A DNA stretch of 64,000 nucleotides. Source: Pilaira anomala. Its lineage: Eukaryota; Mucoromycota; Mucoromycetes; Mucorales; Mucoraceae. Each line of letters starts with the position of its first letter. Position 1 is the stretch's first letter. Location: NCBI GenBank assembly GCA_025716855.1, contig JAIXMQ010000014.1, positions 169,001 through 233,000 on the forward strand. The letters are read 5' to 3'. The translations under genes and the position numbers were made by a program. The notes below the pieces were generated by a model, which ran no database searches, had not been told where the DNA came from, and saw only the letters and a program-made list of their open reading frames with translations. Below are positions 39,167 to 56,083 of the stretch, piece after piece.

Positions 39167-42100
39167 CTCTACTGCTCAACCAAACCATATTATCTTAGCA
39201 GTATTAGCAATAGATTAAAAAATTACTTGGTTTGTTTTTTTTTTCTAATATATACTGTACAGTTTTTGAAGTTTTTAGAGCGTTTGGAAAAGAATCTCAA
39301 TAGGCTTTAGATAGAGTGTAGCAATATTAGTTATCTTTTGTGTTAATTTTAATGATAAGAACTTTTTTGAAGTCTGTCATTTATAATATACGCGTTTTTT
39401 TTTTAAAAAAAAAAAAGAAAAAAAAAAACTATAAATAAAATTTAAAAGAGGTTAACTTAAAATAGCACGGTGGTATGCTCTGTGTAATCATGTTAAGAAT
39501 CTTCTTTTTATTTGTTTACGCTTGCATTACTTTTTAACATAAACAGAAAAGGCTGTATTATATACTTCTATAAAAAGGAAATTTTGTAATACAATAATAC
39601 GCCATAAATCAAGACACACAGCTGTTAGTAGACTATTCTGGCTTTATTATTATTTTTATTATTATTTCTATTTATTATTTTCTCAGTATGATTGTGATTT
39701 ACAAGCTCTTAATGGTTGGTACTAATAAGATGTCAATGAAAATTAAATTACATACTTTTAAAATGTGGTGCTCATTCATATAATTTTGATAGTTTTACTT
39801 TTAGCGAAAAAGAAACTTGTTTTATTATTATAAAAGATACCAAAGATGCTCAGGCGCATATATAGAAAACAGGCGTCGCATAAACAAGTTAAACACAATT
39901 TTAGTCTCAACTTTCAATTGACCATGATGTTCATCTTAAATAAAGTACTAGCTCCTTGACAACGACTACCTTGTTATACCTGATAATTATATAAAAGGAA
40001 ATATATTGACCATAAAAACGGTGCTGTCATATATACAAAAAAAATACGTATTGGGCGGTTAGAGTAGATAATAACCTTTATTGCATGGAACAATAGAAGA
40101 AAGTTAGAGGATACGTATCATTATATGAAGATATAATAGAAAATTTTAAGCCTGATAAGTGAACGGCATAGCTACAAATCAATAAAGATAAACCCCTGAA
40201 ACATGATTTTACAGAAATTTTTAGAATTTCAATTATTCTTGTAAGGTTTAAAAGGATAAGGGATAAATAAAAGAAATAAAAAGTGGGCATTTGTTCCTGT
40301 TTATAAGTAAAATAAAAATGATGTAAAAACTAATAATAGTAAAGTGAAGGAATCAAAAAATTACAAGTCAAAAAACAAGTATAAAGTAATACTATAGAAG
40401 GATCAATAAAAATATTGATTATATAATCTTTTTAGAGGGTTAAGTTTTAGAGTGTAAAGAAAAACGTATGATTCAAAAGAAATGCCAGTTAAAAAAATAG
40501 TTTAAATTTAATGCGCTGTTACAGACTGATTTTTCAACCATTCCTAAATCTCTAATTTACACTTTCAGCTTCTGAAAACTATAAGTTCTTTTGACAGGTT
40601 GTAAATTCTTTTTTATTATTTAAATTCTATATCCCTTTTTTTTTCATTATTTAACTTTACTAAGTCATTTTTTACTTTTGATTTACTTAGAATTGTTCAA
40701 CATCATTTAAATGTCTTGTTGCCTAGCTAACTTTTAAGTTTAACACTTTTTGTTAATATTATAGAACGGCATTACGAGCACCTTGTAAATAATCAAATGG
40801 AGGAAATAAAATAAGATGTGAATACTTAGCTTGTACACGGGAAGGGAAATGTATGTTTATAAAATATATAAATTCCATCAAACAATAAATATTTATATTT
40901 CAACAACTGCTTCAAACTTTTGTCCTCTTATTATTTGAGCTACTTGTAAACTCATTGTATCTTTACCAAAATACAATAACAAGAACGTAGTACTTCTTTT
41001 CTCTGTATAATCTCAATATTTGTTTTTGTAATTGAACTCTTTTTATTATTTATTTTACCGCTTTAAAAATAATGTTACATATCGAATCTCACTCTTTCTT
41101 CAGTACAACTTTTACCACTATTTCCTTTTTTATTATTATCACTCCATTTATATTTCAGCTCACTTTTGCCGTATCACTTTTCATATTTCATTTTCACTCA
41201 TGAAACTTATTTTTTAAACACATTTCTTTTCCGTATTTACTTTGAACACAGCTGTCAAACTCGCTTATGTAATTTTATACATCATACTCCTTCAGTATCC
41301 TTTAATTTATATTTCGTTTTCAGAACTATTATTCTTCCTTTTCCTAAATTAACTATCTATTATTATCAATACCTTTTCATATTAGTTTATTCATCTATCA
41401 AGACATCATCTTATTTTATTAGAAACACGCTTATCACAAAGTACCTTTTTAGTTAGAAATACTTTGATTACCTAACATTTTGATTGAAAAAAATCTCTAC
41501 CATTCTAAATGTCAAAAAGAAAATTACATAATATCTTGGATTTGATATTTATCGAACCTTCTCTTTTCTTTATAATCACACACAAAAACATGTCAGGTAC
41601 AAAATAGAAGATATCTAATGTACTTTATAATTAACAAGAAGATATATTTTTAGATAAAAGAAAAAATGATGTTTATTAAGATGAGCTTCAGGAATAATTT
41701 ATATCTAAGGCTTGCCAGTGTTATTTTAATAGACTGGACTTTTACAATAATTAATATATAATAGAGTGGTAAAAAGATTGATTTGTATTTTTGGAATGAC
41801 TTTATATCTAAATTAAAGTGGTACACAGCTTGTCTAAATTTAGTTGTGACAGGCTGTTAAAAGTTGTTTGTTCGTGGTTAAAGAAAAAGAAGTTCGATAA
41901 AGATAAAAAGAGTTTCGTGAGCACCAGATCTTGTTGACAAGTAGAACGGCTTGATAGAGTAAAGTAAAAAGATAAGAAAATAGAGTTTTTAAAAGTAAAA
42001 TGCAATGGAGAGTTAAATATCCAAGGGAATCCAAATGTAAGAAATAAAATAAAGTATAATAAAAATAAGATATTATTAATATCAAAAGACAAGGTCTTTA

Positions 42101-42437
42101 AGTATAAAGAGGAACAATAAGGGTTTTAATTGTTACAAAATAGTGAATTGATTTTTATATAGTTTGATATTTTTAAAGGAGTATCGTCGTTGAGGACAAT
42201 AGATAATTATATGTGGTAATACGTTGTCACGGTTAAATTAAATAAGCTGTATACTATATTAGATTAAAACATAAAAGGTTCTTCAAAAATAGAAATCAGT
42301 AAACATCATCTTTTTACTTCTATACGTTATTTATTATATGTACAGTCATTTAGAATTACTCTGACATTCAGTGTAACAAGGCCGAGGTAACACACAAGTT
42401 ATTTGTGTGTAACAAAAATTCAATGCAATTAAAAAAT
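39167..42437. other. start of AT-rich gene desert
   Basis: No gene recognized. Base composition shifts to AT-rich sequence with fewer long homopolymers than the left block. Repeat-family copies begin at about 41713 and 41895. Scattered open frames of 60-96 codons are Phe/Tyr/Ile-rich by-products of T-rich DNA. Confidence 0.6.
41713..42110. repeat. dispersed repeat copies (desert family)
   Basis: Unit A (about 41713-41859) contains AGACTGGACTT, AGAGTGGTAAAAAGAT, TTTTTGGAATGA and AAATTAAAGTGGTACACA. Unit B (about 41895-42110) contains GTGAGCACCAG, AAGTAGAACGGCTTGA and a weakly conserved CAAGGGAATC. Both recur at 43.4-44.5, 48.4-49.0 and 51.9-53.5 kb. Confidence 0.8.
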
Positions 42438-42511
42438 TGATTCCATCCGGGTTCGAACCGGAGACCATGGCCGTGTAAAGGCCATGTCATAACCAACTAG
42501 ACCATGGAACC
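42438..42511 (-). tRNA. tRNA-Val(UAC)
   Basis: 74-nt cloverleaf without intron. Acceptor GGTTCCA pairs with TGGAATC (one G-U). The anticodon stem TGGCC/GGCCA encloses TTTACAC, giving anticodon UAC. T-arm CCGG-TTCGAAC-CCGG is intact, with the B box GGTTCGAACCC. Poly(T) follows the gene on the sense strand as Pol III terminator. Identical in sequence to the tRNA at 51762-51835. Confidence 0.95.
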
Positions 42512-42565
42512 AGTTATGGTTTTTTTGATTTTTATAATATTAAATACAATTAGTTTTAAAAACAT

Positions 42566-42582
42566 CACGTGACAAGCACGTG
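42566..42582 (-). promoter_or_regulatory. paired CACGTG module upstream of tRNA-Val
   Basis: In tRNA sense direction: CACGTGCTTGTCACGTG, ending 54 bp before the tRNA. A TATTATAAAA box lies between module and gene. Same architecture as at the other three tRNAs. Confidence 0.75.
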
Positions 42583-43197
42583 ATTATCACGAGGCTGCGG
42601 AGCAGCCCTTTTGTAATTTATGTATTGAGACTTGCACTTTTTTTTTTCGTCATGTCTATAGTTTTAAAGCGCCTTGTAATAATAAAATCTTAAAAGAGCA
42701 AAATTGATAAATATGTTTAAACGTAGTAATTTGTTGAAAGTCTTAAAAATAAGATAAGGTTTTTATTTATGAGAAAAAAAAGGAGGTTGTATTATTTATT
42801 ATATTCAAATAAAAGGGTGGGAAAAGAGTCTACTCTTTTCACATAAGATTGACAGTCTTGATTCATAATAATTTATATGTTACACGTATGACCTGGTCAA
42901 GACGCGTTGTATTGCATGAAAGTTCAGAAAGGGTTTGTGATACCGGGATATTAATCATTTGTGAGAAATCAAGGAGAATTAAATAATAATAATGTCAAAT
43001 AATAATAGGTGGAACCACCTATTAAATAGTAATCAATGATAAAGATATATAGCTGGTATATATCAAAAATATCTACGTTCGGTTTTAGGTTACAAAAACA
43101 GAAGCAAAGAACAAATAGAAAATGCATTATTTATTACATGAATGTAAGATATATACATTAAATCTCCAACTTTTCAAATCATATGCGTCTGGGTTGT

Positions 43198-43214
43198 CAC
43201 GTGCATATCACGTG
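43198..43214 (+). promoter_or_regulatory. paired CACGTG module upstream of tRNA-Gln
   Basis: CACGTGCATATCACGTG, ending 60 bp before the tRNA, followed by ATAAAAAATG and AT-rich DNA. Confidence 0.75.
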
Positions 43215-43274
43215 ATAAAAAATGAGACACACAGTTAGAATATATATTATTTGTTGATTTTATAAATGTATTAA

Positions 43275-43346
43275 GGTTTCATAGTGTAATGGTTATCATA
43301 TCGGTCTTTGAATCCGGTGATCCGAGTTCGATTCTCGGTGAGACCT
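43275..43346 (+). tRNA. tRNA-Gln(UUG)
   Basis: 72-nt cloverleaf. Acceptor GGTTTCA pairs with TGAGACC. The anticodon loop CTTTGAA gives UUG, set in a stem with the T-T mismatch-type closure seen in other eukaryotic tRNA-Gln. T-arm CCGAG-TTCGATT-CTCGG. A T7 terminator directly follows. Confidence 0.95.
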
Positions 43347-45186
43347 TTTTTTCAAAAAAATTTTTCATCGCTATTTTTGTCAACGTCTGTAGTATGTGTT
43401 AAACTTGGATAAGTGTATATGAAATATCTAAAGTATAAAAGATTACTTTTTATTTAGTGAGGATTGAATACAGTTTATATAAAATTAAAGTAGTACAAAA
43501 TAAATATCTTATTTTGACTAAAAAGAATAGTGACATTTTCAGTGTTGTTTGCGTTCCTTAGTTTTCTTTAAAATTGAACAAGTCGTCAGTGTGTCAGAGT
43601 TGTTAATCAAAAGATGTTGTGGTAAAGAATAAAAATAAGATAATAAGGCAAAAGTAAATGAAAAGTGAGCACCCGTTTCTGTTGACAAGTAGAACGACTT
43701 GATAAAATAAAGAAAAAGTGTAGTTTTAAGATAAAGTTACAATGAATAAGTTTTTAGTATTCAAAGGGATTTAGGTACAAAATAAAAGTAGGTAAGGAAA
43801 CGATTAAATAGAAGATCAAGTTTAATATAAAAGGTTTTTAAATTGAAACAAAAAGTAAATTGAATTTTTATTATGATAAGATGTTATGAGTATTTACAGT
43901 ATTATTTTTAGTTTTAAATATTTAGTGATTACAATCTAGGTAGATTTAATATGTTTTGCTGCAAAGTAAGTAGATCCAAAAAGTCGGTAGATTTTCGTGT
44001 AACAGAGTGTCAGAGTTACTTTAATAGACTGGATTAATAATAATTAAAATATATAATAATAGAGTGGTAAAAAGATGATCTTTATTGATTTGTATTTTTG
44101 GAATGATTTTATATATAAATTAAAGTGGTACACAACTTGTGTAAATTTAACCATGACAAGAGTAATTCTAATAGACTGAACTTATTATTACGTTCGAAAA
44201 GGTGATGTTTGAAAGTAGATGAGAAAAAATTAAGAATAAAGAAAATTAAAGGTGGTAAAAAGTTCCAAGGATTATGTTCTTGCGTGAGCACCAGGTTTTA
44301 AGTTATCCAACTAAAGTTTTGTAAAATAAATATATGAAAAAAGAGTTTATAACAATAAAATATAATGAAGAAAAATAAAAGGAATAAAGATAATTGAAGG
44401 GATTTTTTAAGATAATATAAATCTGTACGATATAGAATAAAAATGTATAGTAAAAGTAAGATAAGATTTATTAGAATTGCAGTTTTATGGATTGTATTCA
44501 TACTAATATAAAGAGAGTCGGTTATGAGCTCCTTTGATAAAATGTCAAATCCTGGATGTTGTGTTATTATCTTTTTGACATTGAAATAATTAAGATCTTT
44601 TTCGATCCAGATGTCGTGTAATAAAAGGTACTATTTCTAAACTAAAATAATTGTTGGATTAATAAACGTGTATCTAAACTAAAAAGTTGTTGGACAAATA
44701 AAAATAATAATTCTAAATAAAATGATATTGTGTTCTGTGGAAATTAATAAACTAGTAAAATATATTGTTGTTTTGATAGACAGATAAACTAAGAGAAAAA
44801 GAAAAAGAAAGATAAAAGTTCTAGAAGTTAGAATAAATAAAGGGAACTGGAAATAATAATGGGTTAATAAATTAAAGTAAATGCTAGTTTTGTGCTCAGT
44901 TTAAGAAGTGGTTTTTATTTAAGAGGAATATACTGGTTTATCTATAGATGTTAATAGATTCCTTTAAGTACTAAATTAATGGGAGGGAGAGAACTTATAA
45001 GAAGTGTGAGATATGGAAACTAAAAAATCCAATAGGACTAACGAAGAAGTAAAAAAAGGTAAGAGAAAGAGTAGGAGTGCACTAAGGTGCTACGGGCTGA
45101 ACATGATTTAGAGGGACAATCACCGATGAGGAACTTTGAAAGCATGGCTACCAAAAAGCCGCACCAAAAGACACGACGAGACTTTT
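43347..45186. repeat. repeat-family copies and unassigned AT-rich DNA
   Basis: Copies of the desert repeats occur at about 43396-43535 (diverged unit A), 43655-43830 (unit B), 43996-44157 (unit A) and 44280-44480 (unit B, diverged). The rest is AT-rich without coding support. The 3' part (from about 45000) is less AT-rich and leads into the LINE fragment. Confidence 0.7.
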
Positions 45187-46317
45187 TCACTTAGGGTATT
45201 GATACCACGAGGTCCCCAGGGAAGGGTCAGGCGATATGTTTTTGTTTGGATGACACAGCGCGTCCACGTACCAGAGGAGGATTAAGAGGCTTTCCCAAAA
45301 AGCGGGAGGACTTGATTTAGCTTTTGTTGGCAATGATGAAATAGCAAAATAAATTCTGTTGACACCTGGAGGAACAACAGGGAGAGAGTGAAGAAGATCA
45401 TGTGGAATTGCACGACAGGTCAAGAAGTGTTCACGTGAAATAAGAGCACCTATATCAGTACAAGGACATTCAGTTCTAGCCATAGCAGTAAATCTACCGA
45501 GACGCCAACGAACTAGACGACTACGAGTACAATTATTCATTGGGAGATAGAGAATGGGATCGGGCCTGGTGGGATCAGAGCGGCAGGCACGTAGGAGAAC
45601 ATTTGTACCTTTTCGAGCATAGATCAGTCATTGGGCATCACAACGATCCTGGCAGAATTTTTTGAAGTGTGGGCTTAAAAGAGCGGGGCTTTCTGGTAGG
45701 GATAGATACAAAGGATTATTGGTCTTGAGATAATTATTCAGTCTTGAGTACCGAAGAGAATTTTGTAGATGAACAACCAGTAAATCATCAGGAAGGTAGC
45801 TGGACCGAAAAGAACAAATTTTGTAACTGTTGTGAACGAGCACATTATATTCTCATATAATTACACATGCTCTAATATCCTTCACTACTTTACGATACTA
45901 TAAGTTTATTCACACTACAATAATTATCTAATTGGCTAATATATAAATCACATCATTGTCTCTATGATTAACAAGCCTCTTTTATAATTATCAGGTACAG
46001 CAACCAGTTATAATACTTGGGGACCTTTTATCTTATTTTCAGCAACATGTTTATTGTAATAGATCATTGATCATGGCTATGTTTCACAATTCATGCTTCG
46101 CTTGTTTAACTTCTATTTACTATATATAACCAAACACTTTTTGTACCTTTTAATAAAGTTTAGTTTATTTTGGCAGTCTGATTTATTTAACTTTGTTATA
46201 TATTTTTTATAGCTTTTATTTCCGTTTGTTCTATCACTATAATAGCTCGAACATCTCAGTAACCAAAGAATTATAACGATGGATAACACCAGGGATACAA
46301 GTGATATGTTTAGCAAC
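45187..46317 (-). pseudogene. LINE-like (non-LTR) retrotransposon ORF fragment, broken
   Basis: Reading the minus strand: a stretch before the solo LTR (46264-46317, ITCIPGVIHRYNSLV) continues after it as FRSSYLPDDLLVVHLQNSLRYSRL, then KGTNVLLRACRSDPTRPDPI, and ends in SRLVRWRLGRF with a Cys-Cys-His-Cys knuckle (CPCTDIGALISREHFLTC) and LWYVDALCHP. This pattern is that of the C-terminal part of LINE reverse-transcriptase proteins common in Mucorales. It is interrupted by a solo LTR (45828-46258), a frame shift, and a stop near 45630. No reverse-transcriptase catalytic core is present in the window. Non-functional relic. Confidence 0.65.
45828..46258 (+). mobile_element. solo LTR 1 (431 bp), target duplication GTAAC
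   Basis: Begins TGTTGTGAACGAGC and ends GAACATCTCA. It is flanked on both sides by GTAAC (45823-45827 and 46259-46263), a perfect 5-bp target duplication. It is about 75-80% similar by eye to the LTR at 50768-51220. No internal retrotransposon sequence adjoins, so it is a recombined solo LTR. It interrupts the LINE fragment. Confidence 0.9.
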
Positions 46318-47265
46318 TGTGGTGTGGTCACTGTCGTATTTGCGTCATCTCTACTTATAAATATAAGTAGATCAGGGTTATAAACTAAACATTATAATAA
46401 AAACCTGACATATCTTCATAATAATATACATGTTTAACATTGTATATTATTATCAATATCTTGAACCTAAGGAAATATTCTATATTCAAATGCATATACA
46501 AATTGACGTAAAATAAGATCAATGGTAAAAAACCAAGATCAAATAATAAAATATAATTGAGAATAAAACAATACAAATAAAGTAAATACTCAATTCATAT
46601 TAATAGAAAATAAGAGATATTTACCGGTAATAGTCTCGATACAAGCTTAGCTACCTTGTGTTGGGGTAAGAACGGCTATTACTGGCAAAAATACATTATT
46701 AATCTATTAATATTAAATAGTAATATTATATAACCTGTTTACAAAATAAATAAAAAAGAATAACATTGTTGGAATAAAGATTATCCCAGCAACCGTCAAT
46801 TCTATCCCGAAACTGGGAAAACATGATATCAATCTAAGAATAAGGTTGATCAGGTCGTATGATAGAAAATAGTTCTTGTCAATTTAAAAGTATGCGCATT
46901 TACCAATGAAATCTGTAACAACGGAATCCAGACTAATAACAACCATGTAAGTAATTACAAGGTGATCTTTAGTCAGGAACCAGATATGTTGTTATCCAAT
47001 CGGGTAGATAGGATCCACGATTATTTATGGTCAATTCGAAAGAGTAGAACGTACTTATTCAAAGGCAGAAGAGTTGGGTATAGATTCATTTAAACCCATC
47101 AAAAAGATGGTCCTTATTCAAACACAACTCATCAGGATATTCAAGATATAAAAGATGATTATTATTTTAGTTTAGAAGAGTTCTTTCAGTTTTATTTTAT
47201 CTAATAAATCAACCCTAAGTCTTTTCTCATTAATTACTGATTGTCCACAGTCACTACGAGACTGA
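46318..47265. repeat. left arm of ~0.9-kb inverted duplication
   Basis: Imperfect reverse complement of about 49535-50482. Shared blocks include CACTGTCGTATTTGC at the outer end, TAAACATTATAATAAAAACC, ACACAAGGTAGCTA (as reverse complement), TTTAAACCCATCAAAAGATGG-like sequence, and TAAGTCTTTTCTCATTA at the inner end, which lies inside the last exon of the gene at 47172. Confidence 0.8.
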
Positions 47266-48004
47266 GTATCTTTTGTAGGGCTTACCCTATACTTTTTTAA
47301 AGCGGAATACATAGTAGGAAGGCAATAAAATTCTTTCTTGCTTTCTGGAAAATAAATTGATGTTAATTCCAGCATCGTGTACAGGTTATCTTCATTATCA
47401 TCAACATCTTCATGCTTGTAAAACATATACATAGTTACCAATCGGCCTAGAAAGATGCAACGCTGTTAAAATTATATATATGTCTATATTTGTGGAATAA
47501 AAACTAACCTTCTACCTGGATGCCAAAAAGTTGATAATTATAATTGTTATAAATAATGGCATCCTTAAGGGATGATGCTAGCTTTAATAAATCTCCTTTG
47601 ATTTTCTCTTCTGAAACCATCGGTCTTTTGGTTTCTATTATAATAAAAGGAGTGTTCGAATCTTTGAATACTATTCCTCCGTCAACCTTTTTTGGAATGG
47701 TAGTGTCAGGTTGAGAGCTAGGTACAGACGTTTGCTGTAAATAATATGAATCAGAGTCAAAACTTGATACCATATCGTCAGAGATGATTACAGGACTTGT
47801 GGCAGAGTTACTAGTAACAGGTGAGGTTACAGATGAGACTTGGGATTGAATAGCTTCCCCCAATTTGGAATTAACATGCTTCTTGGTAGCAGCAGAGGTA
47901 GGTTTAACTTTTGAGATAGTTCCAGTAGTCACAATGGGAACTGCATGAGCAGGACCAGTTGTAGGAATGTCTCTAGTTAAAGGTTTTTTAGTAAATGGAC
48001 TCAT
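47172..48004 (-). CDS. repeat-associated two-exon protein, possible PD-(D/E)xK-like fold
   Basis: complement(47172..47462, 47516..48004), 259 aa. The N-terminal half is Ser/Thr/Pro-rich. The second part reads GGIVFKDSNTPFIIIETKRP, then DLLKLASSLKDAIIYN, then GIQ / RCIFLGRLVTMYMFY, and CLPTMYSALKKY. The spacing Asp-x(n)-hydrophobic-E-x-K recalls the PD-(D/E)xK nuclease core, and similar uncharacterized proteins are, to my memory, abundant in Mucorales genomes near mobile DNA. Phase-0 joining at CAG-GTAGAA restores the frame. The last 30 codons and the 3' flank are duplicated inversely at 49.5-50.5 kb. Function unknown; nuclease activity is only a hypothesis. Confidence 0.5.
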
Positions 48005-49534
48005 AGAGGGTAAAATAATTTACAACCTGTATGAGCGCGAATTGAAATGGTCGAATGTAATTCAAATGAGGACAAGATCGTGTTAGTTCAGCAAAGATGC
48101 GAGTGAGATTCGATCGATTTGATGACGGATGGATGCGTTGAAGAAGTTTTCGGATTCGGATTAAGCAAACTTACTGAAAAATTCTTTAATGTAATTATAG
48201 AATCAAATAAGGTACGAAACTGAAAGCGGATTATGAAGAAGTGTAACGTTGAAATATGTTAAAGTTTAAATGGTGTGATAATAATTTGAGGTGTATGTAA
48301 CAATATGTAGTGTATGTAACAAAAATATTTTTTGTTAAATACTGTTAGGTTTTGATAGTCTAAGTAGGTTGAAAGATATACGACGTATAAAATGTAGTTC
48401 GCGTGAGCACCAGTCCCTGTTGTATAAGTAGAACGACTTAAAATGTTATTATTTATAATAAGAATTACAATGAACTATTTAGAAATTCAAGGGAATCGAT
48501 TTTACAAAGCGGGGAAAGAAATTTGGATAATCCTCTTCATGCATTTTCCGTAGGATGGTGTAACAATAGGTAAAACACGGCGTGTAACATAATAATAAAT
48601 ATATATAGTAGTAAAAAGGTGATCTTTATAGGTTTCTATTTTTGAGGGACCTTTTATGTTTTAATCTAATGTAGTACTCAGAGATAGAATTCAATTTTAA
48701 CTGTGATAAGTGCGTCTGATTGATTTGGTTTAAAGTTCCGAGTAGTCAAAAAGTGGTAAAGAGATAAGAAACGAAAGAGTTCGTGTATAAGTTCAAAGAG
48801 ATGTCTTTATACAAAAAGTGAGTACCGCGTTATTGTTATTATACTTAAGTTAAATCCAAAGGTAGTAGGTATAACGAACCAAAATTAAAATTAATAAAAT
48901 AAAAAGATAAAGAAATTGAATACGATAAGTTTACTAACAAGTAGTTCAAATGAATCAAAGAAAATGAAATCATAAGTCTTTAGATTATAAAAATAATAAA
49001 GAATATATAAGCTCTAAAATATATATGTTAATATATGTTCGAAAGAATAAGTTAGAAATTGATTGATTTCATTTCAGTATGTCAAAATGTTTGATATTTA
49101 TAGTTTTAAAAGTATGGTAGGATCGTAACGATGCCCATGATTTCGTCAAGAAATGATGATGAGGTAAGATTGATAAATTTCGGCTAAAAATATAGAAAGA
49201 TAAAGATAAAGAGATGTAATAAAAAGAGATGATACTAATTCGAAAAAAAATATAGAGTGTGTGAGTTGCTTGAATATCGTTTCAAGTTCAGGAAAAAATG
49301 GACTAGAAGATGTTGTGATATAGAATAGATGTGTAATAAAAGAGATAAAAAACTAATAGAGTAGTTTGAGACTGTTTACAATATGTTTATTAGAGTAAAA
49401 AGAGTAGGAGAATTATATCTATTCTTCTATTATTTGAGAGGGTATTTATATTCTTTGTTTTACAGACTAACGAGTTAGTGATGTGATATCATAATAGAAA
49501 GATATCAGCATGTTACTAATAAGATTTATATGTT
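48005..49534. repeat. AT-rich DNA with desert-family repeats
   Basis: Contains unit B at about 48395-48500, a diverged unit A at about 48580-48705, and a further unit B at about 48820-48990. A block at 48505-48560 recurs in inverse orientation at 53150-53215. No gene recognized. Confidence 0.7.
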
Positions 49535-50482
49535 TCTCGCTATTTTAGTGTGAGTGTGGACAATACGGCTTAATGAGAAAAGACTTAGGTAATTTTTATT
49601 ATAAAATAAAACTCAAAAGAACTCTTCTAAACTAAAATAATAATCGTCTTTATATATCCTAAATATCCTGATGATTGTGTTTGAAAAGGACCATCTTTTG
49701 ATGGGTTTAAATGAATCTATACCCAATTTCTCTGCTTTTGAGTATAAACGTTCTACTCTTTCGAATTGACCATAAATAACCTTGAATCCTGTCTATCCGA
49801 TTGGATAAAAATCTATGTCCCTGATCAATTGTACCTTGTAATTATATTACAGAGGTTATCGATCTGGATTCCATTGCTACAGATTTCATTGGTAAATGCT
49901 TTTACTTTAATTGACAAAGAACTATTTTTATTGTACGTCCCGATCAATCCTATTGTTCTACTTGGATTGAATTATGTTTTCCCGTTTTTGGGATTGAATT
50001 GACAGTTGTTGGGATCTTGTTATTCCAACAGCGTTATTCTTTTCATTCTTATTTTTTTATATACGGGTAATATAATATCGCTTTATTATTAATAGATGAA
50101 TAATGTATTTTTGCTGGTAATAGTCGTTCTTATCACAACACAAGGTAGCTAATCTTGTATCGAGACTATTAACAGTAAATATCTCTTATTCGATTTATTA
50201 ATATAAATTGAGAATCTGTTTTGGCTTTTATTTTTATTTAATCCCAATTTTATGTTTTAATATTTGCTCATGGTATTCTAACGGCAATCATATTTGAAGC
50301 CAATTGTATCTGCATTTAAATATAGAGGATTTACTTTAGGTTCAAGATATTGATAATGATATACAATGTTAAACATGTATATTATTATGAGGAGATAACA
50401 GGTTTTTATTATAATGTTTAGTTTTATATCCCTGATCTACTTATGTTTATATAAGTAGAGATGATGCAAATACGACAGTGAG
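49535..50482. repeat. right arm of ~0.9-kb inverted duplication
   Basis: Counterpart of 46318-47265. The outer end is GCAAATACGACAGTG. The inner end carries a decayed copy of the final exon of the gene at 47172, but the rest of that gene is absent here. The 78-codon open frame inside (49766-50002) has no counterpart support and is probably chance. Confidence 0.8.
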
Positions 50483-50767
50483 AATTCACTATCTTTATGA
50501 TTTTAATGTTTAGTGTGGGAAACCACCTCTTTATCTTTTTATTGTTACTATTATGATTTCATGCACTTCCTATTTTATTTGATATTTAAATCTCAGTGTC
50601 TGGATGTAACACATTACTGCTTTATTTACTATGCTAGATCACCACAGAAGACTGAGGTTAATAACGCTGGAAAGTGACATTGTAACATTGCTTAAATTTA
50701 TTTTTCTAATCCATTGTTGGAGAAAACGAAATTCATTTTTAGTTTGGTAATGACAAAGCGGTGAATG
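50483..50767. other. unassigned AT-rich spacer
   Basis: About 285 bp between the right arm and solo LTR 2. No repeat match or coding support seen. Confidence 0.5.
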
Positions 50768-51220
50768 TGTTGTGAACGAACACATTATATTCTCATATAA
50801 TTATCATATTATGTTCTCAACTTCCTTCTATTTTTCTATACAACAAGTTTATCTACTATTACTCTGATTACTTAATTGGTTCTTTTATATAAATCACATC
50901 ATCGTATTTATTGACATAAATTCTTTTTATACTAATTATCAGGTACAGCAGCCAGTTACATTAATTTGAGTAATCTTCAGGAACTAGTTTATTCATGACA
51001 AGCAACGTAGGCAACTGAAGGTCGAAACCTAGGTCAGGCTTCACTATTTATGCAACGCCTCTTTAATTACTACTATTTTACTATATATATTAAGATGCTC
51101 TTTGTATCTTCTAATAAAGTTTACTTTAATTTTGCAGTCTGATTATTTAACCTTTTGTTATACATTTTTATTGCGTTTTATTTTCGTTTGTTCTATCTCA
51201 CTAATAGCTCGAACATCTCA
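50768..51220 (+). mobile_element. solo LTR 2 (453 bp), target duplication GAATG
   Basis: Begins TGTTGTGAACGAAC and ends GAACATCTCA. It is flanked by GAATG on both sides (50763-50767 and 51221-51225). Same family and orientation as solo LTR 1. Different target duplications show two independent insertions. Confidence 0.9.
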
Positions 51221-51380
51221 GAATGAGCCATTTTACAAGCTCAACTAACACTAATAGCGCAACTGACAGCAGCACTGTATTTTTTAAATTTATTCTCTTT
51301 TGGTTTTATTATTATGATTTATTTAATTGAACCACCACTGCTAAAAAAAAAAATGAGTTTTATTATAGAAAAAAGCAAAA

Positions 51381-51412
<32 letters not shown>

Positions 51413-51687
51413 ATTGCATTAAAATAATTTTAGCATTGACTGTTGGAGGTAAAAAATTGAAAATATTTGCTGAATCGAGCAGAATTTTTTTAACCCCACT
51501 GTTGGAGATGCGCTTACAGTTTCATGAGTTCTGAAGACATAGGACTACTTGTGTGAGAAATACTATCCGCCAAAAAACAACAAAGATAATGGGTATTCAA
51601 AAATCTAGTAATCAAATTTAGTACGGCAAACGAAGTATTTTTGCAAATGGTGAACCCCTTATTAGGCACTAGATTGTCTCCGGTAGT
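51221..51687. other. unassigned spacer with poly(A)
   Basis: AT-rich, with poly(A) near 51376-51412. No gene seen. It leads into the tRNA-Val upstream module. Confidence 0.5.
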
Positions 51688-51704
51688 CACGTGAAGGTCA
51701 CGTG
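51688..51704 (+). promoter_or_regulatory. paired CACGTG module upstream of tRNA-Val
   Basis: CACGTGAAGGTCACGTG, ending 57 bp before the tRNA. A TTTATATATTTTAA box at about 25-38 bp upstream of the gene follows. Confidence 0.75.
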
Positions 51705-51761
51705 ATAAAATTTGATGTATTTTTTTTTATTTTATATATTTTAATTTGAGAAAATATCAAT

Positions 51762-51835
51762 GGTTCCATGGTCTAGTTGGTTATGACATGGCCTTTACAC
51801 GGCCATGGTCTCCGGTTCGAACCCGGATGGAATCA
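51762..51835 (+). tRNA. tRNA-Val(UAC), second copy
   Basis: 74-nt cloverleaf, base-for-base identical to the minus-strand copy at 42438-42511. Anticodon UAC. The 3' flank has TTTT a few bases downstream. Confidence 0.95.
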
Positions 51836-53584
51836 TATTTTGCTTCTTTTTACTATTTTTTTCATTTGAAAGATTGTCAGCGTCTGATTAAGTTTTATAG
51901 GAGTGTAACGCTTGTACTTAGTTGAGAAGTGGTAAATAAAGTAAAGAAAAGAGAGTTCAAGTATAAAAACAAAAGATTGAGTTTATACTGCGAGCGAGCA
52001 CCACGTTATTATTATTATATTTTGGTATAAAATACAAAATTAGGTAACGAACCGAGAGAGAATAAAGTAAGAAAAAATAAAATAAAGATAAATAAAAAAA
52101 TAGATACAATGAGCTTTACGTATAAGTAATTCAAGGGATCAATCAAAGTATAAAGTATAAAAAAAGATATTGTTTTTGGGTGAAAATATATAAGGCAAGT
52201 TATTAAGCAGTTGAAAGATAATTGTTTATTGATTCAAGAATCTGATGTCTTTTATAGACGTTCAGTTCCCATGTAAAGAAAGATATATCAAATAAAATAA
52301 ATTGGAAAGGGGTGCCTGAGGTAAAATATGATACTCTTAGTGTCGTGCTACTGTGAGTAATAAAAGATAATAAAACTAAAATGTTAGCTTGGTAAAACAT
52401 TAAAATGTATGTTGAACAAGTCTAGTGAATTGAATGTAAAAATAAAGTAAAATAAAGTTATGTGCTAGAATAAAATGGGGGTTGAGTTGATAGAAGTTCA
52501 ACGAAGAAAAAAATAAAAATTATAAAGAGGATCTGTTGTAAATTACAACCTGTCAAAATAGTAGAATTTCGGAATATAAAAATAAAATAAAATAAGAGTT
52601 ACGAACGGTAAAATACCAGAGCGTAACAGGAGTTTATTATTTTATTTGATAAAAGATATATATATATATTATATGTTAGTTAAAGAGTGATCTTTTATTA
52701 ATATTGATAGAATATAATTTATATATGAAAATAAAGTAGTACAAAATTGAGATACAATTTTGACTAAAAGAATAGTGACAAGATGTTGTCAGAGTTATTC
52801 TAATTGACTGGACTTATAATAAATAATATATAGTAGTAAAAAGATGATGTTTATTGATTTCTATTTTTGAAGAACCTTTTATGTTTTAATCTAATGTAGT
52901 ACACAGCTTATTTAATTTAACTGTGACAATGTCAGAGTTATTTTAATAGACTGGACTTACAATAATTAATGTATAATAATAGAGTGGTGAAAAGATGATC
53001 TTTATTGATTTGTATTTTTGGAATGATTTTATATCTAAATTAAAGTGGTGCACAGCTTGTGTAAATTTAGCTGTGACACTAAAAAGGATATTGCTACACT
53101 ACAAATTCTGTTTTCTAAATTTTTTCTCTGTGGATTATCCATGCGACGGAATATCCATCCTACGGAAAATGCATGAAGAGGATTATCCTAATTATTTCCC
53201 CGCTTTTAAAAAAAATATATATATAAAAACCCAAAAAATGACGCTTACAATAAAATCAATCAATTTTTAATTTATACAATAATCTTAAAAGATTTATCTT
53301 ATCAATACCTATTTGATCCCTTTTATAACATTTTTCTTTACTTTTCTTTTAAAATTGTAAAATCGATTCCCTTGAATTTCTTAATAGTTCATTGTAGTTT
53401 TTATCCTTTTTTTATTATATAAATAATAACATTTTAAGTCGTTCTACTTATACAACAGGAATTGGTGCTCACGCGAGCTATATTTTATACACCGTATATC
53501 TTCCAACTTACTTAGACTATCAAAACCTAATAATATATAAGTTTATAAGTGTCTGAATAATTCTAATTGACTGAACTTATAATA
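51836..53584. repeat. clustered desert-family repeats
   Basis: Unit B at about 51990-52160; diverged unit A at about 52640-52795; two further unit A copies head to tail at 52796-52928 and 52929-53082; and a reversed unit B at about 53330-53470. The two adjacent A copies each open with GTCAGAGTTATT and close with TGTGACA. No gene recognized. Confidence 0.75.
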
Positions 53585-53818
53585 GGGGTGTTCAGACCAA
53601 TTTATGCTAAAATCTGACAAATTTACGTTAGCCAATAAAATTATTTTGGGTCTGAACACCCCAAATGCAAAAAAAATTCAATTTTTTAGTTGACAGATGA
53701 TGAAAATCTTTCATTATGCAATTAGTTTCTTAAGTGAATAAACTTTTTTTTTTTTTGCTCCTACTCTTCTTTATCTTCTATACTTTGTATTTAACTATAT
53801 CTTGAATCTTTATAAAAA

Positions 53819-54023
53819 TGGCCAATCAACGTCCCATCCAAAAAAAAAAAAAACTAATGCTATTACTGCTATTGAACAAAACAGACGTGATAAAGGAAAG
53901 GGTAGACAAATCGGGGTAGTTCCTGAAACCAATGTTAGCAAAACATACATTAATTGTGATAAACCCGTCAACGAGCGTAACCAGCAATCTCCTACGGATT
54001 ACTTGGTGGATTTCGAGTTCTAG
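53819..54023 (+). CDS. small ORF inside the MITE-bounded element
   Basis: From ATG at 53819 (MANQRPIQ) the frame runs into an A13 tract (53841-53853). The coding-like continuation (NAITAIEQNRRDKGKGR, ending YLVDFEF and stop) is in another frame, so reading it requires a shift inside the homopolymer or a start farther upstream in that frame. About 68 codons, basic in the middle. Unknown; possibly a degenerate cargo gene. Confidence 0.3.
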
Positions 54024-54059
54024 TGAAATGATTCTCAATGTGATCTTTACATACATTTA

Positions 54060-54209
54060 TCAATATCTTGTATAGTGCACGACGCTTAAAATCACAGTAA
54101 CAAGACGTTGCAATGTTTCCATGCAGGATTTGACAAGTACCTTTGTTTCTTTTTCACTTTTCTTCAAGGACTTTATCAAGTTGGATTTTGGGAAAACTCT
54201 AGGCATTGT
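54060..54209 (-). CDS. 49-aa ORF inside the MITE-bounded element
   Basis: Starts MPRVFPKSNLIKSLKK and continues ETKVLVKSCMETLQRLVTVI before a stop. The two amphipathic segments with FPKSNLIKSL resemble, loosely, helices 1 and 2 of a histone-fold protein (as in NF-Y/CENP-type LPK-x-x-hydrophobic openings). Too short for a full fold unless further exons exist downstream. Low confidence. Confidence 0.3.
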   Translation of the reverse strand, partial: TMPRVFPKSNLIKSLKKSEKETKVLVKSCMETLQRLVTVILSVVHYTRY

Positions 54210-54489
54210 ACGATATTGCTGTTTGGTTGTTTTGATTGTTATTATATTATAAAAGAGAAAATTATACATACACAGATATAAAAGAGAAAAAAAGAAAGTA
54301 ATCTAGTTGTTATAATGACATATATTTTTTTTTTGACATGACGCATAATTTGTACCAAAATGCAAATTAAACAAAGATTTGTTTTGCGATTTTAGGTGTT
54401 CAATTATAAAAATCTGACAATTTTTTTTAACCAATCAGATTATTTTAAATTTTGCACGATTTTAGCACAAATTGGTCTAAACACCCCTA

Positions 54490-55926
54490 AATATATTTGA
54501 AAAATAATTAAACTATTAAATATTTAGCTAGCTATTTATTTTGGGAAATGTGAATGAAAACAAAGTGATCTTGTTAGATCATTTAATAAACGGCTACGCC
54601 ATTCCCGTTCTCCTCATTAATAAATAAAGTGAAAAACAGAAAAAGAAGTAGTTTTTCAACAAAAATATTATATTAAGGTACACGATAAAAATAAACGGAA
54701 TTTTAGTAGTGCTGATACATTACTAATACTTACTAGTGAATCATGTATTGGTAGATATACGAAGAATATTTAACGATTTATTAGCAAACGTACTATGGCT
54801 TAATTGTAATACAAAACTTTAAATTTAACTTTTATTTAGCTTGTTCATGCATAAATCAAAGCATTCACATTAATTGAAAGAAAGTACATGTGTCTTGTTA
54901 GATCATACATTTATCATCTATATACACATGTTTAATGTATTTTTATTCATATATTTTATTTCTGACGTTTTTTTTTAGAGTCCATTTCAATAAAATCCTT
55001 AAATAAAGCAATTTTTTTTATTGATAAAAAATTAGAGTAACAGTTTATTATTAAATAATTTTGTCAGAGAAAAGATACCTACTATATGTACCATGTTACT
55101 TCATATTGCTCATGATACAAAAAATATATATATATATATATCGCTTGGAACATGAGACTATACAGTTATATTAGCCCACAGACTTAATTCTAAATAAATT
55201 GATGATACTACTTTTTACTTATAGCAATCCGAAGTTCTTCATAAGTTTACTTTTCTGAAGTGAATTTCATTTTTAGAAACGTACTTAACTTCCTTTTATT
55301 TTCATATTTTAAAACTTTCACGCTTTTAATCCTAGCTGTTGTATGTACAAAATCTTTGATATATACTACGTGCTTGAAAAGAAACATCTATATAAACATG
55401 ATTCAAGTCTAAGAGGATATTAAGCTTGCGTTTATTTTTCGCACGCCACAATGTATCTGCTTTCGCACGCCACAATATATCTTCTTTCGCACACCACAAT
55501 ATATATGCTTTCGTACGCCACAGCATTTTTTTTCCTTTTAGTTTTGTTATATCTAGCACCTATAAGTGATAAGGCAAACTTATTAACAGCCCCAGGTTGC
55601 TATTATAATACCTATCTACAATCTTATGTTTGTAGTATCGTATTTCTGTTCTTGAGAAGTATTGTCCTTGAACAATGATGCTCTGTTTAAAAGCTTAATG
55701 CTTTAGATAAAAAATTATGGTAGTTAATAAGAAAAACACATTAATACTTTTGTCAAAATCAATCCAATGTTTATAACTTAGTTATGTTTGATCTTTCTAT
55801 CATATTTTACTTTATCCAAAACAGGAGCTGATGTTTATCAACTTCATTGAACCTTTTTTTCTTTACTTAAATTTCTTAGCAGGTTAAATATTTATCCGGA
55901 TTTTTATGGAAAAACAAAAAAAATAT
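54490..55926. other. unassigned AT-rich DNA with a 24-bp minisatellite
   Basis: No gene recognized. The tandem repeat at 55437-55532 is the only clear structure. The octapeptide-repeat frames read from it are by-products. Confidence 0.5.
55437..55532. repeat. 24-bp tandem repeat, four copies
   Basis: Units TTTCGCACGCCACAATATAT plus 4 bases, at 55437, 55461, 55485 and 55509, the last diverged. The core TTTCGCACGCCACA also occurs once near 22276. Confidence 0.9.
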
Positions 55927-55999
55927 TGGAGTAGCTGGGCGTCGATCCCAGTGCCTCTCACATGCTAAGCGAGCGCTCTTCCATTTGAGCTACAACCCC
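55927..55999 (-). tRNA. tRNA-Ala(AGC)
   Basis: 73-nt cloverleaf without intron. D-arm TAGCTCAAATGGAAGAGC, anticodon loop CTTAGCA giving AGC, T-arm CTGGG-ATCGACG-CCCAG. The acceptor pairs GGGGTTG with CTACTCC with one mismatch (position 6-67) and one G-U. A T8 run follows on the sense strand. Confidence 0.93.
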
Positions 56000-56066
56000 T
56001 GTGTTACACGAAAGTGACCAATAATTTGTCGCTCTTATACCAAGTAGCTAAATTTATTTTTGCACG

Positions 56067-56083
56067 CACGTGACTTACACGTG
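56067..56083 (-). promoter_or_regulatory. paired CACGTG module upstream of tRNA-Ala
   Basis: In tRNA sense direction: CACGTGTAAGTCACGTG, ending 67 bp before the tRNA. This is the fourth instance with identical spacing. Confidence 0.75.

What the first reader, a model, noticed from the sequence alone, without database searches (positions are those of the whole stretch)
42566..56083. All four tRNA genes share an upstream CACGTG-N4-T-CACGTG module with exact 11-bp spacing
Seen directly: at 42566-42582 (tRNA-Val, -), 43198-43214 (tRNA-Gln, +), 51688-51704 (tRNA-Val, +) and 56067-56083 (tRNA-Ala, -), two perfect CACGTG hexamers stand 11 bp start to start, about one helical turn. They lie 54, 60, 57 and 67 bp before the first tRNA base. 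Read toward the tRNA, the base before the second hexamer is always T. The N4 differs each time, so this is not simply copied sequence. Elsewhere in the window CACGTG occurs only singly (about 9870, 18171, 22262, 27530, 45430). Known: CACGTG is the bHLH (Cbf1/Pho4/USF-type) site, while tRNA promoters are normally internal A and B boxes. Inference: a bHLH dimer pair bound on one face of DNA may act as an upstream Pol III element or a boundary/nucleosome-positioning site at tRNA genes.
Basis: partly seen in the sequence, partly recalled or inferred. Interest (0 to 1): 0.85.

Follow-up and report, generated by a model that had tools for sequence, protein, structure and literature searches.

The report
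Paired CACGTG sites upstream of tRNA genes
In this fungal genome at least half of the tRNA genes examined have a matched pair of regulatory DNA sites at a fixed place just before the gene, and a jumping gene found wedged between such a pair and its tRNA gene carries a spare copy, which suggests that the pair is a real switch for making tRNA.

Summary
All four tRNA genes in the window have CACGTG-N5-CACGTG upstream, T before the tRNA-side hexamer. Genome-wide (34.25 Mb) the pair occurs at 150 places against 0 for the reversed control; all gaps 0-30 together give 171 against 19, so only gap 5 is enriched. Of 44 tRNAs picked by Rfam score where module lists are complete, 22 have the exact pair 54-69 bp upstream, 0 downstream. 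In 30 score-picked tRNA loci: 17 exact, 6 degenerate, 7 none. Three 5S loci have no CACGTG nearby and four U6 hits no exact pair. Each half reads RTCACGTG towards the tRNA, a Cbf1-like flank; a Cbf1-like gene is present. Best reading: an upstream Pol III promoter element bound by paired Cbf1-type dimers. Binding, expression and other species were not testable.

The parts
42566..42582 (-). paired CACGTG module of tRNA-Val (TAC); reads CACGTGCTTGTCACGTG towards the tRNA
   Evidence: 53 bp from the tRNA 5' end
42437..42512 (-). tRNA-Val (anticodon TAC)
   Evidence: ARAGORN
42530..42539 (-). TATA-like stretch TATTATAAAA at -27 to -18 of tRNA-Val, outside the genome-wide cluster at -37 to -31
   Evidence: sequence; cluster
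43198..43214 (+). paired CACGTG module of tRNA-Gln (TTG); CACGTGCATATCACGTG
   Evidence: 59 bp from the tRNA
43241..43249 (+). TATA-like stretch TATATATTA starting at -33
   Evidence: sequence
43274..43347 (+). tRNA-Gln (anticodon TTG)
   Evidence: ARAGORN; Rfam RF00005 60.9 bits
51688..51704 (+). paired CACGTG module of tRNA-Val (TAC); CACGTGAAGGTCACGTG
   Evidence: 56 bp from the tRNA
51733..51739 (+). TATA-like stretch TATATAT starting at -28
   Evidence: sequence
51761..51836 (+). tRNA-Val (anticodon TAC)
   Evidence: ARAGORN
56067..56083 (-). paired CACGTG module of tRNA-Ala (AGC); reads CACGTGTAAGTCACGTG towards the tRNA
   Evidence: 67 bp from the tRNA
56033..56039 (-). TATA-like stretch TATAAGA starting at -40
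   Evidence: sequence
55927..55999 (-). tRNA-Ala (anticodon AGC)
   Evidence: ARAGORN; Rfam RF00005 47.6 bits

Best explanation
The module is a tRNA-gene upstream promoter element: two (sometimes three) tandem RTCACGTG sites 11 bp apart, whose gene-side end lies 52-67 bp before the mature tRNA, just upstream of where TFIIIB should sit. Shown here: its genome-wide link to tRNA genes, fixed gap, fixed side and distance, direction, absence from the 5S and U6 genes examined, and LTR elements that hold a copy at the same place when they stand before a tRNA gene. Inferred: Cbf1-type bHLH dimers fill both sites on one face of the helix and help TFIIIB load or keep the tRNA promoter open, acting with the normal internal A and B boxes.
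For: 150 exact gap-5 pairs against 0 for the reversed control; all gaps 0-30 give 171 against 19. Exact module at 22 of 44 score-picked tRNAs with complete module lists, 54-69 bp upstream, 0 of 44 at the same distance downstream; independently 22 of the 100 listed B-box matches have one upstream, 0 downstream. Of 30 score-picked tRNA loci 17 exact, 6 with 1-2 mismatches, 7 none; in a control stretch further upstream 1 of 58 tRNAs reaches two mismatches or fewer. In 45 exact-module tRNAs: T before the proximal hexamer 45 of 45, R before that 43 of 45, but A after the distal hexamer only 18 of 45, so the unit is directional; a third unit 11 bp further out has at most 2 mismatches in 14 of 45, against 0-2 at the other 29 upstream offsets and 0-3 downstream; 23 of 36 TATA(A/T)A matches start at -37 to -31. 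40 of 45 have no match to LTR A/A' or repeat B. No CACGTG within 1.5 kb of three 5S loci; no listed module near four U6 hits, none in the 100 bp before one of them. At one of two LTR A insertions with both flanks held, both flanks carry CTAA, a native near-module (CACGTGTATATCACATG) survives on the far side and the LTR's own module stands 56 bp from tRNA-Lys. One gene matches the yeast Cbf1 bHLH-zipper at 48% over 100 of 104 residues.
Against: Seven of 30 score-picked tRNAs lack the module; three of them share another leader with a TATA box, so it is not indispensable. The sample is skewed (14 of the 30 are tRNA-Lys; of the 10 tRNA-Lys with anticodon CTT only 2 have the exact pair). No binding, chromatin or expression data. 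No second genome was tested. Of 58 sampled pairs 25 have no intact tRNA: 15 match repeats and 10 are other, at least two of those at tRNA stubs. The other LTR A insertion with both flanks held (L080/L079) has no native module in its flank and no ARAGORN tRNA. TATA-like position varies.
Confidence: 0.62

Rival explanations
1. The pair is a boundary or nucleosome-excluding site: Cbf1-type dimers act as a general regulatory factor that separates tRNA genes from neighbouring chromatin, without directly helping Pol III.
For: One-sided, fixed position just outside the expected TFIIIB region would also suit a nucleosome-edge function; bHLH factors can bind tandem E-boxes on nucleosomes (PMC12424780, a preprint, passages read).
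Against: A boundary need not keep a 52-67 bp distance or a direction, nor sit on one side only; LTR A and repeat B hold it at the same distance from the gene.
Confidence: 0.2
2. The module is a retrotransposon feature first: Ty3-like elements carry it, insert before tRNA genes, and the tRNA-linked modules are remnants of old LTRs without a promoter role.
For: LTR family A/A' and repeat B both carry the pair; the tRNA-Pro (L067) and tRNA-Ser (L086) modules lie in diverged LTR-A-like sequence; the third-unit traces at other tRNAs resemble the three-unit LTR array.
Against: 40 of 45 exact modules show no match to LTR A/A' or repeat B (older or other families were not modelled); at L067 both hexamers are perfect while the LTR-like body is 68-72% identical; the far flank at L084 shows that a near-module stood there before that insertion.
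Confidence: 0.08
3. A protein other than a bHLH reads the pair, for example a Hac1-like bZIP or a Pol III-specific factor.
For: A yeast bZIP (Hac1) also prefers CACGTG (PMC3334620, passages read); no binding data exist here.
Against: Hac1 prefers A or C before the core and Cbf1 G or T (same passages); here it is T in 45 of 45 proximal and 38 of 45 distal sites.
Confidence: 0.1

Closest known systems
Upstream TATA elements of tRNA genes in S. pombe and plants
   Same: A recurrent 5' element outside the gene added to internal A and B boxes; TATA-like stretches occur here too.
   Different: The conserved element here is a paired E-box 52-67 bp upstream. [quoted passage not shown] pombe; it took 50 bp upstream of each gene.
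Gaf1 (GATA factor) at S. pombe tRNA genes
   Same: A sequence-specific factor that binds tRNA genes genome-wide (PMC7068653, passages read).
   Different: A GATA-type factor that represses tRNA genes after TORC1 inhibition; here a bHLH-type DNA element with fixed geometry, role untested.
Myc/Max at mammalian Pol III genes
   Same: bHLH-zip proteins that recognise CACGTG near Pol III genes (PMC4482074, passages read).
   Different: There an E-box in the 5S spacer and E-boxes near 7SL are described, and c-Myc is said to bind the TFIIIB subunit Brf1 directly; here a pair stands at a fixed place before tRNA genes.
Cbf1 sites of yeast (RTCACRTG, consensus recalled)
   Same: T before CACGTG, R before that; a Cbf1-like gene is in the genome.
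   Different: Tandem pair with 11-bp period at tRNA genes; use of single sites at centromeres and Pol II promoters in yeast is recalled.
Ty3, Tj1 and other tRNA-targeting Ty3/gypsy elements
   Same: Insertion a few bp upstream of the tRNA: Ty3 1-4 bp from the start of transcription, Tj1 5-11 bp from the mature tRNA (PMC5911963 and PMC4600332, passages read).
   Different: The LTR carries a copy of the host's upstream element at the native distance. The Tj1 authors argue that insertion between upstream elements and start would very likely disrupt a promoter; here that insertion is seen and the LTR holds a replacement.
CLOCK:BMAL1 tandem E-boxes
   Same: Two E-boxes with exact short spacing.
   Different: 6 or 7 bp between sites there (PMC12424780, preprint, passages read), 5 bp here.

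Membership tests
tRNA-gene upstream Pol III element | Recurrent at tRNA genes on the 5' side only | tested here: met
   22 of 44 exact upstream, 0 of 44 downstream; the other 17 of 61 tRNAs have incomplete module lists (5 with one upstream, 0 downstream)
tRNA-gene upstream Pol III element | Constant distance from the gene | tested here: met
   52-67 bp in 44 of 45 exact-module tRNAs held, one at 87
tRNA-gene upstream Pol III element | Needed for tRNA transcription | not testable with these tools
   no expression or mutant data
Cbf1-type binding site | G or T before CACGTG | tested here: met
   T in 45 of 45 proximal and 38 of 45 distal; preference from PMC3334620 passages
Cbf1-type binding site | A Cbf1-type protein encoded | tested here: met
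Cbf1-type binding site | Occupied by that protein | not testable with these tools
   none
Gene-external (type 3) Pol III promoter | Internal A/B boxes not needed | not tested
   the genes are ordinary tRNA genes, which argues against; need was not tested
Ty3/gypsy tRNA-targeting LTR element (element A) | LTRs with inverted ends, gag and target duplication | tested here: met
   TGTCAA..TTGACA ends (TTGATA in A'), PF03732 gag E 1.3e-11 in L080, 4-bp duplications CTAA and AACT in two of two insertions with both flanks held
Ty3/gypsy tRNA-targeting LTR element (element A) | RT-RH-IN order of Ty3/gypsy | not tested
   only gag and a sub-threshold protease match lie in the held stretch
Ty3/gypsy tRNA-targeting LTR element (element A) | Inserted within about 10 bp of the tRNA | tested here: met
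   L083 9 bp and L087 10 bp; other copies have no ARAGORN tRNA beside them
CLOCK:BMAL1 tandem E-box | 6-7 bp between E-boxes | tested here: not met
   150 sites at 5 bp; all other gaps 0-30 together 21

The most novel reading that the evidence does not exclude
tRNA genes of this fungal lineage run on a composite promoter in which a bHLH dimer pair outside the gene is a regular part, tying tRNA output to a growth-type bHLH factor. The Ty3-like elements that insert between this element and the gene have evolved or captured a spare copy in the LTR end, at the right distance, so that insertion replaces the promoter part rather than breaking it; as LTRs decay around a conserved module, tRNA promoters are renewed by retrotransposons.
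Probability: 0.35. Interest if true: 0.9.

Novelty: new variant of a known kind. Interest (0 to 1): 0.77.

Why it matters
tRNA promoters are taught as internal, with only weak or TATA-type 5' signals. A widespread paired bHLH site at fixed geometry would make tRNA transcription in these fungi directly tunable by a known class of growth regulators, and would explain how a retrotransposon can land inside a promoter without harming its host. It is testable with one deletion and one ChIP.

Tried and rejected
Chance: rejected. Copied sequence: rejected as the general cause, since 40 of 45 exact-module upstream regions have no match to LTR A/A' or repeat B, and alignments among them are short (about 20-87 bp) and overlap the module; it holds for five (L025/L083, L087, L062, L067, L086). 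A general Pol III element: not supported by three 5S loci and four U6 hits, three of them over cut-off (and my reading of the lists). An Rfam scan of 20 of the 23 module loci then without a tRNA found no known RNA. Of the 58 sampled sites seven remain unassigned by me (L043, L044, L046, L058, L059, L061, L068), and L070 is only tentatively a tRNA stub. A search upstream of the seven module-less tRNAs for displaced modules within two mismatches (1.5 kb, only 0.5 kb for L009, and a restricted set of variants) found none. A first count of tRNA-linked modules, 35 of 58, credited neighbouring sites; the own-site count is 33. In print: the listed rows (at most 20 per search, of up to 127 papers) showed no title or abstract start that describes a CACGTG pair at tRNA genes or an LTR carrying one; the library is open-access papers only, and one search failed on a malformed term. 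Other Mucorales were not compared: the tool holds no relatives of G000, and I made no scan of the viral or prokaryote contig collections.
Full report
OBSERVATION. Pairs of this kind are expected 0.02 times in shuffles of the window.

GENOME SCALE. The window lies in a held assembly, G000, of 34.25 Mb. CACGTG-N5-CACGTG occurs 150 times and its reversed control 0 times. With any gap of 0-30 the counts are 171 and 19, so all gaps other than 5 add 21, about background. Module coordinates were listed for 128 of the 150; the 22 unlisted ones lie past C182:448238 in the list order. Rfam RF00005 gave 61 tRNAs (63 of 1882 first-look candidates were scored, so this is a sample, rich in tRNA-Lys). For the 44 tRNAs where the module list is complete, 22 have an exact module 54-69 bp upstream (two overlapping pairs in one case) and none has one at the same distance downstream; of the 17 with incomplete lists 5 have one upstream and none downstream. 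As a second handle, 22 of the 100 listed B-box matches (136 in all, about half likely noise: reversed control 67) have a module 90-170 bp upstream and none downstream.

DEGENERATE AND ABSENT CASES. Thirty tRNA loci chosen by score alone (L005-L034) were examined: 17 exact, 6 with one or two mismatches at exact 11-bp spacing (L019, L020, L021, L024, L027, L034), 7 without (L006, L008, L009, L013, L022, L026, L028). Fourteen of the 30 are tRNA-Lys; of the ten with anticodon CTT only L023 and L025 have the exact pair. A matched stretch further upstream reaches two mismatches or fewer in 1 of 58 tRNAs. The seven are evidence that the element is not indispensable. L006, L008 and L009 share a 56-63 bp leader with TATAAAAG directly before tRNA-Trp and tRNA-Lys.

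ANATOMY. In the held loci 58 distinct tRNAs were found, a set biased towards modules because many loci were fetched by module: 45 exact, 6 with 1-2 mismatches, 7 with 4 or more. The 45 cover 15 amino acids. The module's gene-side end is 52-67 bp from the tRNA in 44, and 87 in one. The proximal unit reads R (43 of 45) T (45 of 45) CACGTG A (31 of 45); the distal unit has T in 38 of 45; the base after the distal hexamer is A in only 18 of 45, so the units are directional rather than palindromic in their flanks. A third unit 11 bp further out has two mismatches or fewer in 14 of 45, against 0-2 of 45 at the other 29 upstream offsets and 0-3 at the downstream offsets tried. Of 36 TATA(A/T)A matches in the last 60 bp, 23 start at -37 to -31. 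In yeast TFIIIB lies at -15 to -32 from the start (PMC8632968, passages read), and the start is about 10 bp before the mature tRNA (PMC5911963, passages read); if the same holds here, the module lies just outside TFIIIB.

OTHER POL III GENES. No CACGTG lies within 1.5 kb of three 5S loci (two good, one partial). By my reading of the lists, no module lies near the four U6 hits (three over cut-off), whose contigs have complete lists, and the 100 bp before one U6 gene hold none. The other U6 upstream stretches could not be read, so degenerate pairs there are not excluded.

WHERE ELSE THE PAIR OCCURS. Of 58 module loci fetched by pattern, 33 have an intact tRNA with the module at 53-87 bp, 15 match repeat families, and 10 are neither. 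Among the 25 without an intact tRNA, L002 (Lys), L053 (Leu), L037 (His) and L040 (14 of 15, Val- or Pro-like; L041 is the overlapping site of the same locus) carry only the first 15 nt of a tRNA, 51-63 bp from the module, followed by unrelated sequence; shuffled flanks reach at most 12 of 15. Seven sites stay unassigned.

THE LTR ELEMENT. Eight loci without an ARAGORN tRNA share LTR A or A'. The LTR runs TGTCAA to TTGACA (TTGATA in A'), and in L080 the part inside encodes a Gag protein (PF03732, E 1.3e-11) with a sub-threshold protease match. The LTR carries CACGTGAAGGTCACGTG 47 bp from its 3' end. In L083 and L087 the LTR ends 9 and 10 bp before tRNA-Lys and tRNA-Glu, which puts the LTR's module at 56 and 57 bp, the native distance. 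On contig C151 two LTR copies in the same direction bracket about 5.8 kb. Both outer flanks carry CTAA, and the far flank still holds a native near-module, CACGTGTATATCACATG, starting 75 bp from the LTR. So here the insertion separated the native module from tRNA-Lys and supplied a new one. The second pair of LTRs with both flanks held (L080/L079) shows AACT on both sides but no native module in the flank, and only tRNA-like sequence by eye beside it, which does not support the displacement story. L073's flank has, by eye, a decayed pair, CACGTA-N5-CATGTG. A second repeat, B, not proven to be an LTR, carries a module 53 bp from its end and lies 11 bp before tRNA-Ser (L062) and 10 bp before a tRNA-His stub (L037). 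At tRNA-Pro (L067) sequence 68-72% identical to LTR A/A' ends at the gene-side end of the module; both hexamers are perfect although the spacer has changed. The LTR query found 25 matches, not all full length.

WHO BINDS. PF00010 finds 47 HLH hits, 44 over cut-off (hits, not genes). Yeast Cbf1 prefers G or T before CACGTG, and Hac1 A or C (PMC3334620, passages read). The flank and the gene together point to a Cbf1-type protein; binding is inference. A 2008 paper (PMC2570694, passages read) suggested that an ancestral bHLH may have tied CACGTG to growth genes in opisthokonts; a tRNA role would fit that idea.

VERDICT. The best reading is an upstream tRNA promoter element used by paired bHLH dimers, with a retrotransposon that carries its own copy. 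It is a new variant of a known kind; the LTR copy is the most surprising part, and rests on few copies. The main gaps are other species, binding and expression.

Noticed in passing
L002, L053, L037, L040/L041 (and tentatively L070): tRNA genes cut after 15 nt, inside box A, followed by unrelated AT-rich sequence; no 3' half of any tRNA in my set was found in the held flank. Another tRNA-directed insertion may act at box A.
   Followed up: partly
L001, L004, L010, L019, L021-L028, L038, L052, L072, L086, 29-37 bp 3' of the tRNA: A one-strand motif like GGTGYRTGTAGAC stands 29-37 bp downstream of 16 of 58 tRNAs, and 0 of 58 in an upstream control or on the other strand; the pattern was written after seeing the sequences.
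   Followed up: partly
L006, L008, L009 upstream; L092: tRNA-Trp and tRNA-Lys genes without the module share a 56-63 bp leader with TATAAAAG and AAGCGAAA; one U6 gene has TATATAAGAAGCGAAA before it, so a second promoter class may exist.
   Followed up: no
window 41855-42179: A repeat of about 325 bp recurs at 70-93% identity in a dozen or so of the held loci, which are nearly all tRNA or module loci by selection (45 of 69 rows shown).
   Followed up: no
window 42705-42885 and 42907-43059: Sequence between the two divergent tRNA modules resembles sequence in L077.
   Followed up: no
window 45818-46258 and 46331-47249: Near-identical repeats (98-99%) shared with L037, and with L052 and L028, suggesting recent transposition near the tRNA genes.
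   Followed up: no
L054, L057, L060: A further repeat family (C), with no ARAGORN tRNA in the held 3 kb, carries the CACGTG pair plus a near third unit (CATGTG).
   Followed up: no
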